Assembly (NCBI GenBank): GCA_023362775.1
Contig: JALMGJ010000008.1
Location: forward strand, 19,256,001-19,320,000
Origin: Charina bottae
Lineage: Eukaryota; Chordata; Lepidosauria; Squamata; Charinaidae
Reading direction: 5' to 3'
Length of the DNA stretch: 64,000 nucleotides
Under the pieces are notes generated by a model. The model saw only the letters and a program-made list of their open reading frames with translations. It was not told where the DNA came from and searched no databases. Made by a program: the position numbers and the translations under genes. Below, in pieces: positions 49,206 to 63,755 of this stretch; the stretch's first letter is position 1, and each line of letters opens with the position of its first letter.

Positions 49206-49211
49206 GGCCAT
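49206..49211. repeat. Maverick target-site duplication, left
   Basis: GGCCAT is repeated exactly at 63750-63755. Six-base duplications are the established signature of Maverick/Polinton integration. Confidence 0.95.
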
Positions 49212-49265
49212 AGTAGATATAGTACATACCGTTTTTTAATGGAACTTATCAGCACTTTTGATCAG

Positions 49266-49458
49266 TGACGTCATCAAAGTAAACAAACCCACGTGGTGCT
49301 GACGTCACCAGGTCATGCCCCCAAGGGGAAGTGACGTACCCAGCCCCCACCCTCCGGATATGACGTGCATAGCCCTCCTCCCCGGATGTGATGTGCATAA
49401 TCCTCCCCCCCACGTGGTGAAGGGGTCACAAGGTCGTAACCCTAGCCGGATATGACGT
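49266..49458 (+). promoter_or_regulatory. Cluster of TGACGT (CRE/ATF-like) motifs
   Basis: Full palindromes TGACGTCA occur at 49266-49273 and 49300-49307. TGACGT half-sites follow at 49332, 49361 and 49453, and a decayed TGATGT at 49387. CACGTG E-box-like palindromes are at 49290 and about 49411. Binding by ATF/CREB or bZIP factors is inferred. A mirror cluster lies in the right repeat at about 63503-63695. Confidence 0.55.
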
Positions 49459-49632
49459 GAGGGCCTAATCCCATCAAGAAAAGCATGAGTAACCCTAATC
49501 AGATAAGGCGTGTCGAACCTAGCCCCCATCAAGAAAGTGATTAGATTAACCCCTAGCCTAATTCTATGGGACATCCAAAATAAAAAATAAATACATTTAA
49601 AACACCTAAGTAATGTGAATCATTAACAGAGG

Positions 49633-49948
49633 CCTAGGCTGAGCTTTATTTTTGGGAAACATATCCTACTTTGTGAAATAAAAAATAATAGCCTGATGAT
49701 GCTTTTAATTTTTTGTGATGTTTTAAAAATCAGCGCCTCGAATGCTGGGAAAAGGAGCCCCTAAAAGGCAGCCACAGCCTGCATTTGACCTAGGCTGAGC
49801 TTTATTTTTGGGAAACATATCCTACTTTGTGAGTGAAATAAAAAATAATAGCCTGATGATGCTTTTAATTTTTTGTGATGTTTTAAAAATCAGCACCTCG
49901 AATGCTGGAAAAAGGAGCCCCTAAAAGGCAGCCACAGCCTGCATTTGA
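49633..49948 (+). repeat. Two tandem 156/160-bp repeats within the left TIR
   Basis: Each unit starts CCTAGGCTGAGCTTTATTTTTGG and ends with CAGCCTGCATTTGA. Units start at 49633 and 49789, and a fragment of a third start (CCTAG) is at 49949. The right repeat has the same arrangement inverted at about 63012-63328, without the 4-bp insertion. Confidence 0.9.
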
Positions 49949-50374
49949 CCTAGCCCCCAGCTTTTACCTTTGTAAAAATCTAAAGACACATATTTTGCCA
50001 GAGGTACCCTCAAAGCCACACGTACGCGTAAGCGTTTCAAGAAAGGCCTTAATAAAATTTATTCCACCCCTACAGCAAAAGACAAGGAATATTAACAGGA
50101 ATTTAAGTACTCACAAGCGGCAAGCGGGCAGGCGGCAAGTATCCGGTCGTGGCATGCCCGGGCGTGTCAAGGCCCGGCGATTAGGGGCGTGCATGTTTGT
50201 GTCTGCTAGTAAAAAGGGGGTTAGGCCTTGTTCAGAACATGCCCGGGCATGTCAAGGCCCAGCGATTCAGGGCACGCGCAAGGCTCGATGACGTGTCTTC
50301 GCAGGGGGCAGGCGAGCTTGTGCACACAGACCTGAACAGCTATCGGTTTAAACCTAGCCGGGGTTGAAAATAAT

Positions 50375-51087
50375 ATGGCTGCCTCAGATTCCAAAGAAGT
50401 GTTTAATGAAGGTTCCGCAAGCCTATTTACCTCGTTGGACACCCCTACCAACACAAGGAGCAACTCAAGACCGTTGCTGGCACAATGCAGCAGAAGCTGC
50501 TGTCGGGGATTTGATAAAGAAAATGAATTCTTCAGACCGGTGTTGTACGGGTGTAGTAAGCAGTGCTGTAAATTTAGCGATGAGGAACAGGGGAAAACAG
50601 TGGACACATCCTGTAATACTTACGAAGCGGTTTGTGAAACGGTGAACAGATCATCTTTAGACCCTCTCAAAGGACACGGAGAGGGTAAGTAACTATTTTT
50701 ATTTATCATTATGTAAATGCTGCTGGAGCCGGTAGCACACTAACAGGATATGTTTTATATTTTGCAGTCTCCGAATTAACACCACCTAGCCAGCAAGCAC
50801 TTCAAGATACCCCAATTTTATATTCCAGTGTTAATTGCCGCGGTCACAAAGCTTCTGAAGATTTTTCTGATCTAGAATATAACCAGGATTCCAATCTATC
50901 CCAGAGACCAAGCTATCTGTCCTGTGAGTTAAAGAGCTGCAATATATGTAAAGACTGGCTTGCTTGCGACTGGGGACATGATTTGTGGGGTATAGACGGG
51001 TCAGAAAGGGCATCATATTGTAAAATAGCGTGTTATGACACTTTATCTTCTGATGCTGAAAGTGATGATGAGGGGGTATTTTTCTGA
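50375..51087 (+). CDS. Spliced cysteine-rich Maverick protein, unknown function
   Basis: Two exons: 50375-50684 and 50768-51087. The 83-nt intron starts GTAAGT and ends TTTTGCAG. The split codon joins in frame and exon 2 stays open to TGA at 51085-51087, giving about 209 residues. Cysteine motifs are CSRSCC and CSKQCC in exon 1 and CNICKDW plus further Cys in exon 2, which suggests metal binding. The C-terminus is acidic and Ser-rich (SDAESDDEG). I recognise no family. It lies 32 bp inside the left TIR and may be driven from it. AATAAA follows at 51123-51128. An LxCxE Rb-binding motif was looked for and not seen. Confidence 0.75.
50685..50767 (+). other. Intron of the cysteine-rich gene
   Basis: 83 nt, GTAAGT donor, TTTATATTTTGCAG acceptor with pyrimidine-rich tract. 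The exon 1 frame reads on past the donor for only two codons before a stop, which supports splicing. Confidence 0.75.
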
Positions 51088-51122
51088 TGGCGGAGCCATG
51101 CTCCTCTGAACTCTGTATTACC

Positions 51123-51128
51123 AATAAA
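51123..51128 (+). terminator. Polyadenylation signal after the cysteine-rich gene
   Basis: AATAAA lies 36 nt beyond the stop at 51087 and 52 nt before the integrase start, so the two genes probably have separate transcripts. Confidence 0.6.
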
Positions 51129-61536: not shown

Positions 61537-61542
61537 CACACT

Positions 61543-61836
61543 GCTGATGTCACAAACTAATCACGTCAGAGGCTGTGAATTCTTCACACCTTTTGCAAAA
61601 CTGGCCATCCCCACCTGACCAGGCATCCCCATTTGAATAGTTGATGATGTTACAATCTAATCAAATCAGAGTTGGTGAGTTCTTCACGCCTTTTGTAAAA
61701 CTGGCTATCCCCACCTTGCCAGGAAGCTACATTTGAATAATACCATCCATGCCAGGTTGTATTCTTAACATCTTTTTGCAAAACCAGACAGTCCCCACCC
61801 TGCATCAGGAAACTCTGATTGAATAATATCACACGA
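61543..61836. repeat. Three degenerate tandem repeats of about 100 bp
   Basis: Each unit holds TTCTTCAC(A/G)CCTTTTG(C/T)AAAAC-like text, a CATCCCCACC-like block and a TTTGAATA(G/A)T end. Units begin near 61543, 61643 and 61745. They lie in the non-coding gap between the PolB promoter and the TIR-proximal gene, a plausible control region. Confidence 0.7.
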
Positions 61837-61924
61837 GCTTTGATTAAATTCTGTGTTTACCAGGTGACAAGGTCCAAAAAAGAAAAAAACATAATACATC
61901 TTTCATGTGATTTGAAAAACACAT

Positions 61925-61930
61925 TTTATT
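61925..61930 (-). terminator. Polyadenylation signal of the right-end gene
   Basis: TTTATT (AATAAA on the minus strand) lies 7 nt past the stop codon at 61938. Confidence 0.65.
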
Positions 61931-61937
61931 ATAAAAT

Positions 61938-62571
61938 TCATAGGGTGACTGCTAACAGTTTCTTGTAATTAATTTCTGTTACATTCTGACATATTAACCG
62001 CTTCAGAGACAATGGCAATTCATCTTCAATATTTGACATTAATGAAAGTGGTTTACTGCTCTTCTCGATATGTTGTATGAATGTATTGAGCTCACCAAGG
62101 GTGTCCCGGGTGAAATATAATTTATTCACTTTGTCAGAAATACTGATGACAATCCAGAGAACATGAGGAATAGAAAGTCTAAAGCATAAGCTGTTAATAA
62201 GCTCTGTTTCACTGGTGCCATCCACATGGTCTTCGTCTGATTGTAGACATCCCATTAAACAATGATGTAATATTTTAATGATACACGCTTTCAGAATCTG
62301 AGGCATGCTAACATTTTGAGACTCCACCGTTTCTAAAACAGGAAATAAGGTAGAATTAGCCTAGCTGTTTCAACTACTCAAAATACTGTTTTCTTAATTT
62401 TTATATTTACTTACCATTTGATGTTTTGCAGAATCTGCAATAACAAGGTTTTATAAGTTCATTCTTCTCAATGAGCTCATGTAACTCAGGTTTTTTTCTT
62501 ATTCTACGTCCACGCTTGGGAGCTTTGGGGGTCAAATTTACATCAAACAAATCTGTATCAATATTTGCCAT
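61938..62571 (-). CDS. Spliced right-end Maverick protein, unknown function
   Basis: Two exons: 62415-62571 (ATG at 62571) and 61938-62332. The 82-nt intron has GTAAGT at its start and TGTTTTAG at its end. The frame is continuous across the join, giving about 183 residues. Exon 1 encodes a basic nuclear-signal-like stretch (KAPKRGRRIRKK) and a CYCRFC cysteine motif. Exon 2 is helical with little low-complexity sequence (DTLGELNTFIQHIEKSSK). I recognise no family. It sits just inside the right TIR and mirrors the position and single small intron of the left-end gene, suggesting both are accessory or early genes using TIR promoters. Confidence 0.72.
62333..62414 (-). other. Intron of the right-end gene
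   Basis: 82 nt, with consensus GTAAGT donor and a pyrimidine-rich TTATTTCCTGTTTTAG acceptor on the minus strand. Without splicing, exon 2 would have to start at a GTG. Confidence 0.75.
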
Positions 62572-62622
62572 CTTCAAAATACGGGTCTTTTATTTTTCAA
62601 AAGACTGCTGGATTTAATCTGG

Positions 62623-63749
62623 TAGCTGTTCAGGTCTGTGTGCACAAGCTCGCCTGCCCCCTGCGAAGACACGTCATCGAGCCTTGCGCGTGCCCTGAAT
62701 CGCTGGGCCTTGACATGCCCGGGCATGTTCTGAACAAGGCCTAACCCCCTTTTTACTAGCAGACACAAACATGCACGCCCCTAATCGCCGGGCCTTGACA
62801 CGCCCGGGCATGCCACGACCGGATACTTGCCGCCTGCCCGCTTGCCGCTTGCGAGTACTTAAATTCCTGTTAATATTCCTTGTCTTTTGCTGTAGGGGTG
62901 GAATAAATTTTATTAAGGCCTTTCTTGAAACGCTTACGCGTACGTGTGGCTTTGAGGGTACCTCTGGCAAAATATGTGTCTTTAGATTTTTACAAAGGTA
63001 AAAGCTGGGGGCTAGGTCAAATGCAGGCTGTGGCTGCCTTTTAGGGGCTCCTTTTTCCAGCATTCGAGGTGCTGATTTTTAAAACATCACAAAAAATTAA
63101 AAGCATCATCAGGCTATTATTTTTTATTTCACAAAGTAGGATATGTTTCCCAAAAATAAAGCTCAGCCTAGGTCAAATGCAGGCTGTGGCTGCCTTTTAG
63201 GGGCTCCTTTCCCCAGCATTCGAGGCACTGATTTTTAAAACATCACAAAAAATTAAAAGCATCATCAGGCTATTATTTTTTATTTCACAAAGTAGGATAT
63301 GTTTCCCAAAAATAAAGCTCAGCCTAGGCCTCTGTTAATGATTCACATTACTTAGGTGTTTTAAATGTATTTATTTTTTATTTTGGATGTCCCATAGAAT
63401 TAGGCTAGGGGTTAATCTAATCACTTTCTTGATGGGGGCTAGGTTCGACACGCCTTATCTGATTAGGGTTACTCATGCTTTTCTTGATGGGATTAGGCCC
63501 TCACGTCATATTCGGCTAGGGTTACGACCTTGTGACCCCTTCACCACGTGGGGGGGAGGATTATGCACATCACATCCGGGGAGGAGGGCTATGCACGTCA
63601 TATCCGGAGGGTGGGGGCTGGGTACGTCACTTCCCCTTGGGGGCATGACCTGGTGACGTCAGCACCACGTGGGTTTGTTTACTTTGATGACGTCACTGAT
63701 CAAAAGTGCTGATAAGTTCCATTAAAAAACGGTATGTACTATATCTACT
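62623..63749 (-). repeat. Maverick right terminal inverted repeat (1,127 bp)
   Basis: Reverse complement of 49212-50342 with about five base differences and no GTGA insertion. It carries the mirrored CRE-like cluster (about 63503-63695), the two 156-bp repeats (about 63012-63328) and the 129-codon frame at 62674-63063. Confidence 0.95.
63503..63695 (-). promoter_or_regulatory. Mirror CRE/ATF-like cluster in the right TIR
   Basis: The inverted copy of the left cluster. TGACGTCA palindromes are at about 63654-63661 and 63688-63695, with half-sites further in. One CpG beside an inner half-site differs from the left copy (ATATTCGG against CCGGATAT). Confidence 0.5.
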
Positions 63750-63755
63750 GGCCAT
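63750..63755. repeat. Maverick target-site duplication, right
   Basis: GGCCAT, identical to 49206-49211. Confidence 0.95.

What the first reader, a model, noticed from the sequence alone, without database searches (positions are those of the whole stretch)
49206..63755. Full-length, apparently young Maverick/Polinton in a squamate genome
All hallmark genes, both 1.13-kb TIRs and a perfect 6-bp duplication are present. The TIRs differ by about five substitutions and one 4-bp indel, and capsid, protease, ATPase and integrase frames are undamaged. Intact copies with a complete capsid module are uncommon in amniotes and suggest recent mobility or recent infection by an adintovirus-like agent.
Basis: partly seen in the sequence, partly recalled or inferred. 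Interest (0 to 1): 0.9.

Follow-up and report, generated by a model that had tools for sequence, protein, structure and literature searches.

The report
Young snake Maverick provirus, polymerase broken
A complete-looking virus-like mobile element of the Maverick kind sits in what looks like a snake genome and probably went in recently, but one stop codon cuts its DNA polymerase gene in two, and it carries two apparently spliced genes next to its end repeats.

Summary
A 14,538-bp Maverick/Polinton (49212-63749) lies between GGCCAT duplications, with inverted repeats of 1131 and 1127 bp that differ by four substitutions, all transitions, and one 4-bp indel. Core gene order fits published vertebrate Mavericks, and its capsid and polymerase group with snake copies. 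At squamate rates the repeats give about 0.6-0.7 My (range 0.17-1.9). They are not a strict clock, but CpG content and nearly undamaged frames also point to a recent insertion.

"Intact" does not hold. The polymerase is interrupted by one in-frame stop at 59711-59713; its two pieces match consecutive parts of single proteins in relatives, including a 1295-aa Thamnophis protein. The other eight core frames have no stop; of these only the capsid protein was compared end to end with relatives.

New here: each end, just inside the repeat, carries an inward-pointing gene with a short GT-AG, phase-1 intron (82-83 bp). The right one matches a Thamnophis protein across the exon junction; the left one is inferred. 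Passages of the main survey report no introns in intact elements. Splicing, other copies, empty site and host species were not tested.

The parts
49206..49211 (.). left target-site duplication GGCCAT
63750..63755 (.). right target-site duplication GGCCAT
49212..50342 (+). left terminal inverted repeat, 1131 bp, begins AGTAGA; holds a two-copy 156-160 bp tandem duplication at 49633-49953
62623..63749 (-). right terminal inverted repeat, 1127 bp; tandem duplication at 63012-63328
50375..50684 (+). left accessory gene, exon 1 (inferred); first ten residues match the start of Thamnophis protein P0241
50685..50767 (+). left accessory gene, inferred 83-bp intron, GTAAGTAA...TTTTGCAG, phase 1
50768..51087 (+). 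left accessory gene, inferred exon 2; AATAAA/ATTAAA hexamer at 51123
51180..52262 (+). integrase (rve core, C-terminal chromodomain), 360 aa
52264..52953 (+). 229-aa frame in the place of the minor capsid (penton) protein; by position
52944..53360 (+). 138-aa frame in the place of PW; by position
53367..54677 (+). major capsid protein, 436 aa, relatives of the same length in snakes
   Evidence: that the family is the capsid protein rests on gene order and recall
54674..55213 (+). capsid-maturation cysteine protease, 179 aa from a GTG; in-frame ATG is the third codon
55251..56027 (-). 258-aa frame in the place of PZ; by position
56031..56357 (-). 108-aa frame in the place of PM; by position
56388..57059 (-). 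packaging ATPase by place and Walker motifs, 223 aa
57062..59701 (-). DNA polymerase B, C-terminal piece, 879 aa, with exonuclease and polymerase motifs
59711..59713 (-). in-frame TGA stop that interrupts the polymerase
59714..60889 (-). DNA polymerase B, N-terminal piece, 392 aa
61938..62332 (-). right accessory gene, exon 2; 74% identical over 127 columns to P0241 (Thamnophis elegans LOC116521077)
62333..62414 (-). right accessory gene, 82-bp GT-AG intron, phase 1
62415..62571 (-). right accessory gene, exon 1 (ATG at 62571); 63% identical over 52 columns to P0241

Best explanation
This is an integrated provirus of the vertebrate Maverick/Polinton (adintovirus-like) kind in a snake-like genome, inserted by its own retrovirus-like integrase with a 6-bp staggered cut, probably within the last two million years. 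Two convergent core modules (integrase, capsid proteins and protease on +; polymerase, ATPase, PM and PZ on -) would give protein-primed replication, capsid assembly, packaging and maturation. Two accessory genes start just inside the terminal repeats, point inward and appear to be spliced. This copy is probably no longer self-sufficient: one in-frame stop separates the N-terminal 392 residues of the polymerase from the part with the exonuclease and polymerase motifs. Shown: anatomy, duplication, repeat divergence, kinship of integrase, protease, capsid protein and polymerase, the stop, and the right-hand exon junction against a Thamnophis protein. Inferred: host, the function of each step, splicing in vivo, loss of polymerase function.
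For: Terminal repeats and duplication. Integrase with chromodomain; protease similar to S273R of African swine fever virus (2.2e-05; virus name recalled); Walker motifs; DNA_pol_B_2; capsid relatives in snakes, lizards, turtles, amphibians and fish among the 120 listed. Gene order as in PMC8097293. The two polymerase pieces: of 240 fetched proteins (120 of them from the polymerase search), 99 match both pieces; in 75 of 99 the two matches are adjacent and in order. The closest, Thamnophis P0121 (1295 aa) and P0122 (1276 aa), run across the break. The window copy lies inside a snake clade in both trees (100/100; the clades also hold 2 of 6 and 1 of 12 rows from unnamed sources). CpG observed/expected is 0.51 in the element and 0.65 in the repeats against 0.29 in the 49-kb host stretch. 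At the observed repeat divergence about 0.6 nonsense and 1.7 frameshift changes are expected in the core frames, with one frameshift per ten substitutions assumed; one nonsense was seen; P(at most one)=0.33, falling to 0.018 at the upper limit of divergence.
Against: Terminal repeats are not copied from one template as LTRs are (general knowledge), so their similarity is an indirect clock; gene conversion could make the insertion look younger, and differences present before insertion could make it look older. The AGTAGA terminus matches neither of the two common published end motifs exactly. The stop could be a sequencing error or a variant of one individual. No call names the host. PW, PM, PZ and minor capsid protein are named by position only, the ATPase by motif and position. 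In 24 of the 99 proteins that match both polymerase pieces the matches were not adjacent by the rule used. No fold was predicted.
Confidence: 0.9

Rival explanations
1. An intact, currently active element or integrated infectious adintovirus; the stop is a sequencing error, a rare allele, or is bypassed (readthrough or a new start at the ATG just downstream).
For: No stop in the other core frames; only one defect; the polymerase motifs looked for lie downstream of the stop; relatives with unbroken polymerase exist in snakes.
Against: The stop is in the only sequence at hand. The N-terminal part is conserved in relatives (77.6% to P0121 over 392 columns), so a product without it would lack a conserved part. 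The first Met of the C piece is left out of the blastp match to P0121 and of most of the 22 rows printed; two rows start at residue 1. This does not favour a conserved internal start.
Confidence: 0.12
2. An old insertion whose terminal repeats were kept alike by gene conversion.
For: Inverted repeats 13 kb apart can recombine; long repeats favour this (general knowledge).
Against: 9606 coding sites with one disabling change are very unlikely at 2% or more repeat divergence (probability printed as 0.0000); CpG is far less depleted than in the surrounding DNA. The differing sites inside the tandem units are private to one unit, not exchanges between units.
Confidence: 0.06
3. An assembly join of free viral or contaminant DNA to host contigs.
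For: No reads were available.
Against: Perfect 6-bp duplication on both sides; flanks without similarity to the rest of the window (only 245 bases of right flank are in the window); relatives lie on contigs of 100 Mb and more in Thamnophis and Vipera.
Confidence: 0.02

Closest known systems
Vertebrate Mavericks / alphaproteoviruses (Nino Barreat and Katzourakis 2021, PMC8097293; abstract, first part of Results and passages seen)
   Same: Two convergent core modules in the same order, PM between ATPase and PZ, 6-bp duplication, size 14.5 kb within 12.7-24.6 kb, repeats of 1.13 kb within 46-1447 bp.
   Different: Polymerase interrupted; AGTAGA end; accessory genes with apparent introns, whereas that paper reports no introns in genes of intact elements. 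Five of its 134 intact copies are from tetrapods; snakes are named among the reptiles with integrations, but the passages seen name no intact snake copy.
Beta-class adintoviruses, reference Terrapene box turtle (Starrett et al. 2021, not held; described in PMC11071296, passages)
   Same: Integrase with C-terminal chromodomain; family B polymerase and virion genes. Adintovirus-like RNA is reported from a tortoise (PMC10812802, passages), and Adintoviridae contigs with disrupted frames, judged endogenous, from Australian lizards (PMC11160328, passage).
   Different: The OTU-like N-terminal polymerase domain named there was not found by Pfam or PDB sequence searches here. The reference sequence itself was not compared, so alpha or beta class was not tested.
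Thamnophis elegans copies (P0121 polymerase LOC116523417; P0241 accessory LOC116521077)
   Same: Polymerase C piece 92% and N piece 78% identical; accessory exon 2 74% identical.
   Different: That polymerase is unbroken; that accessory protein has 33 more N-terminal residues, of which the first ten resemble the left, not the right, accessory gene of the window.

Membership tests
[quoted passage not shown]
Maverick/Polinton | Retrovirus-like integrase with chromodomain | tested here: met
   NCBIfam matches to IS481 and IS3 transposases lie below their cut-offs
Maverick/Polinton | Family B DNA polymerase gene present | tested here: met
   in two pieces
Maverick/Polinton | Protein-primed replication | not testable with these tools
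   known for the family (PMC8097293); nothing here tests it
Maverick/Polinton | Adenovirus-like cysteine protease | tested here: met
   PDB match 2.2e-05 to S273R protease; Pfam Peptidase_C5 only 0.0083, below cut-off; H, D and C motif positions
Maverick/Polinton | Packaging ATPase | tested here: inconclusive
   Walker motifs and place in the gene order; best Pfam match Pox_A32 0.05, below cut-off; no significant PDB match
Maverick/Polinton | Double jelly-roll major capsid protein | tested here: inconclusive
   close relatives in many vertebrates; no match by sequence in the PDB; fold prediction never ran (15 busy answers)
Maverick/Polinton | Minor capsid, PW, PM, PZ genes | tested here: inconclusive
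   open frames in the right order; no significant family match
'Intact' vertebrate Maverick (PMC8097293) | All core genes open | tested here: not met
   in-frame stop in the polymerase
'Intact' vertebrate Maverick (PMC8097293) | One of the published end motifs | tested here: not met
   AGTAGA against (AGT)2, (AG)3 and (AC)3A
Adintovirus | OTU-like domain at the N terminus of the polymerase | tested here: inconclusive
   no OTU family among the matches at E<=0.1 of the 19 members of A2 (the first member is the C piece alone); the N piece matches only designed TIM barrels in the PDB, best 0.0018, taken as chance
Adintovirus | Free virions | not testable with these tools
   sequence only

The most novel reading that the evidence does not exclude
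Snake Mavericks carry a pair of spliced, inward-pointing accessory genes whose transcripts start in or beside the two terminal repeats, an arrangement like the E1 and E4 early regions at the ends of adenovirus genomes (recalled). Because the repeats can be copied into each other, the first exons may be exchanged between the two ends: the left gene here starts with the same ten residues (eight identical) as the Thamnophis protein that otherwise matches the right gene (score 35 against 14 for the next of 1552 ATG-started 10-mers). They would be fast-changing, lineage-specific early regulators.
Probability: 0.35. Interest if true: 0.65.

Novelty: new member of a known kind. Interest (0 to 1): 0.48.

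Why it matters
Nearly complete Mavericks are rare in amniotes (in the one survey seen in part, 5 of 134 intact copies were from tetrapods). A recent snake copy with one clear defect, relatives in several snake genera and apparently spliced accessory genes gives a concrete place to ask whether these elements still move or transmit in reptiles, and whether their accessory genes are expressed like early genes of DNA viruses.

Tried and rejected
The 129-aa frame inside both terminal repeats (49902-50291, 62674-63063) was rejected as a gene: no Pfam match for the left copy and a codon score below each of the ten core pieces. Exchange between tandem units as the source of repeat differences was rejected: the variants are private to one unit (the coordinates printed there for R1 against R2 run the wrong way, the letters are right). 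Maverick fragments in the host part 1-49205: none by blastn at 1e-3. A second empty or occupied site in the window: none. Viral contigs: three scans (polymerase piece, polymerase alignment, capsid alignment) confirmed no relative. Rfam at gathering scores: no match. LxCxE motifs in the accessory exons: none. PHROGs: nothing significant for 7 proteins, best 0.06. TATA-like words on the inward strand of the repeats: none printed. Codon scores favour the accessory exons only weakly (0.038 to 0.055 against -0.025 to 0.033 for seven frames taken as chance and 0.039 to 0.150 for the core). Starrett et al. 2021 is not held.

Fold prediction of the capsid protein was asked for 15 times and each time answered as busy. 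The own-genome search was asked for eight times and never answered. only waited.
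Full report
The element. Two GGCCAT copies (49206-49211, 63750-63755) flank inverted repeats 49212-50342 and 62623-63749. The repeats align over 1127 positions with four substitutions, all transitions, and one 4-bp indel. Two of the four differing sites (49734, 50113) form a CG pair in one of the two repeats, the kind of site that changes fastest in methylated vertebrate DNA (general knowledge); the other two (49449, 49750) do not. Each repeat contains a 156-160 bp unit twice.

Genes. On + run the integrase (Pfam rve 1.2e-13 and Chromo 3.7e-08; retroviral integrases and chromobox proteins in the PDB), a 229-aa frame, a 138-aa frame, the 436-aa capsid protein and a 179-aa protease (only PDB match at E<=1: cysteine protease S273R, 2.2e-05). 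On - run, from the other side, the polymerase, the ATPase and frames of 108 and 258 aa. This is the order given for vertebrate Mavericks in PMC8097293 (first part of the Results; passages). The 229-, 138-, 108- and 258-aa frames are assigned to minor capsid protein, PW, PM and PZ by place only; Pfam, NCBIfam and PHROGs gave nothing significant for them.

Age. PMC9447483 (passages) gives 2.8e-9 substitutions per site and year from rattlesnake against Anolis, and quotes 2.4e-9 for squamates. With these, four differences give 0.63 and 0.74 My, with limits of 0.17 to 1.89 My from counting error. One viper paper assumes 2e-8 (PMC9256536, passage), which would make the insertion younger still. Independent of the repeats, CpG observed/expected is 0.51 in the element against 0.29 in the first 49,205 bases. 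The core frames hold one disabling change in 9606 sites, where 2% repeat divergence would predict about 13 (3.45 nonsense plus 9.61 frameshift, one frameshift per ten substitutions assumed). Terminal repeats are not set equal at insertion as LTRs are, so the age holds only on that condition.

The broken polymerase. The frames 57062-59701 and 59711-60889 on - lie in one reading frame and are separated by a single stop codon. I searched only the C piece against the protein database (2057 hits at E<=1e-10 among 6126 candidates, 120 listed) and compared each piece apart with the 240 proteins fetched by then, 120 of them from that search. The N piece matches 99, all of which also match the C piece; in 75 of 99 the two matches follow each other within 40 residues, in 24 they do not by that rule. 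P0121 from Thamnophis elegans matches the N piece at 25-414 and the C piece at 420-1295. The exonuclease and polymerase motifs looked for are in the C piece. Unbroken relatives exist.

Kinship. Trees of the polymerase (34 of the 120 listed relatives plus the window) and of the capsid protein (30 of 120 plus the window) place the window inside a snake clade with 100/100 support; 2 of the 6 and 1 of the 12 rows in those clades come from unnamed sources. Its nearest rows are Thamnophis copy a (polymerase, 92%) and Vipera latastei (capsid, 94% over 314 columns). The two trees differ outside the snakes: in the polymerase tree the snake clade stands apart from a lizard-turtle-crocodile group (98/99) at an unresolved fork; in the capsid tree its sister is Pogona with one unnamed row (100/99). 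Two Thamnophis elegans copies lie in two snake sublineages in both trees.

Accessory genes. A search with the frame 61941-62327 found two proteins among seven candidates: P0241, Thamnophis elegans LOC116521077, 208 aa, and P0242, unnamed. Laid on the element, P0241 residues 34-80 match 62571-62416 (63% over 52 columns) and residues 81-206 match 62333-61953 (74% over 127 columns). Between them lies 62414-62333, 82 bases that begin GTAAGT and end TTTTAG, so the protein crosses a GT-AG intron. The left end has the same plan: an ATG at 50375, GTAAGTAA after 310 bases, an 83-bp interval ending TTTTGCAG, and an exon in frame to a stop at 51087. GGTAAGT occurs three times in the element on both strands together, twice at these two places. 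The first ten residues of the left frame resemble the first ten of P0241 far better than any other ATG-started stretch of the window (score 35 against 14; 1552 compared), although that short match alone had E=0.78 in the tblastn of the element. An AATAAA or ATTAAA hexamer lies 36 bases after the left gene (51123 on +) and 8 after the right one (61930 on -), but the element holds 20 such hexamers on + and 29 on -. No TATA-like word was found on the inward strand of the repeats, so a promoter there is conjecture. Neither gene has a known family: Pfam for both, PDB for the right gene's alignment A3, PHROGs for P0241. PMC8097293 states that no introns were observed in genes of intact elements; in PMC11071296 'splice' and 'spliced' do not occur and the one use of 'intron' concerns something else. 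Starrett et al. 2021 could not be read, so spliced adintovirus genes may already be in print there. Paper searches made.

Against my reading. The ATPase has no significant family or PDB match and rests on motifs and place. The capsid protein has no PDB match by sequence and its fold was not predicted. The OTU-like domain said to mark adintovirus polymerases was not found. The AGTAGA end deviates from the published motifs. Codon scores separate the accessory exons from chance frames only slightly.

Verdict. A new member of a known kind: a recent Maverick in a snake-like genome, with its polymerase broken once. The part a specialist would not expect is the pair of apparently spliced genes beside the terminal repeats.

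Noticed in passing
61545-61739: A 100-bp unit repeated twice (82% matches) between the polymerase start and the right accessory gene; it might be a promoter region.
   Followed up: no
49902-50291 and 62674-63063: A 129-aa frame lies in both terminal repeats, but its codon score is below that of the core genes.
   Followed up: yes
49350-49411 and 63550-63607: A 28-bp unit repeated about twice in each terminal repeat.
   Followed up: no
29834-30553, 42710-44770, 23773-24873: Reverse transcriptase frames (Pfam RVT_1) in the host stretch, LINE-like by recall; the largest is an open frame of 686 aa.
   Followed up: partly
32800-33618 and 10301-11119: A reverse transcriptase frame (RVT_1) and, elsewhere, a GIY-YIG frame, as expected of Penelope-like elements (family recalled).
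   Followed up: partly
7060-7564 and 41851-42337: Two stretches whose translations share repeated Cys/His words, perhaps copies of one repeat.
   Followed up: no
trees: Snake Maverick polymerases do not group with those of lizards, while the snake capsid clade is sister to a Pogona copy; different histories of the two genes or too few rows could explain it.
   Followed up: partly
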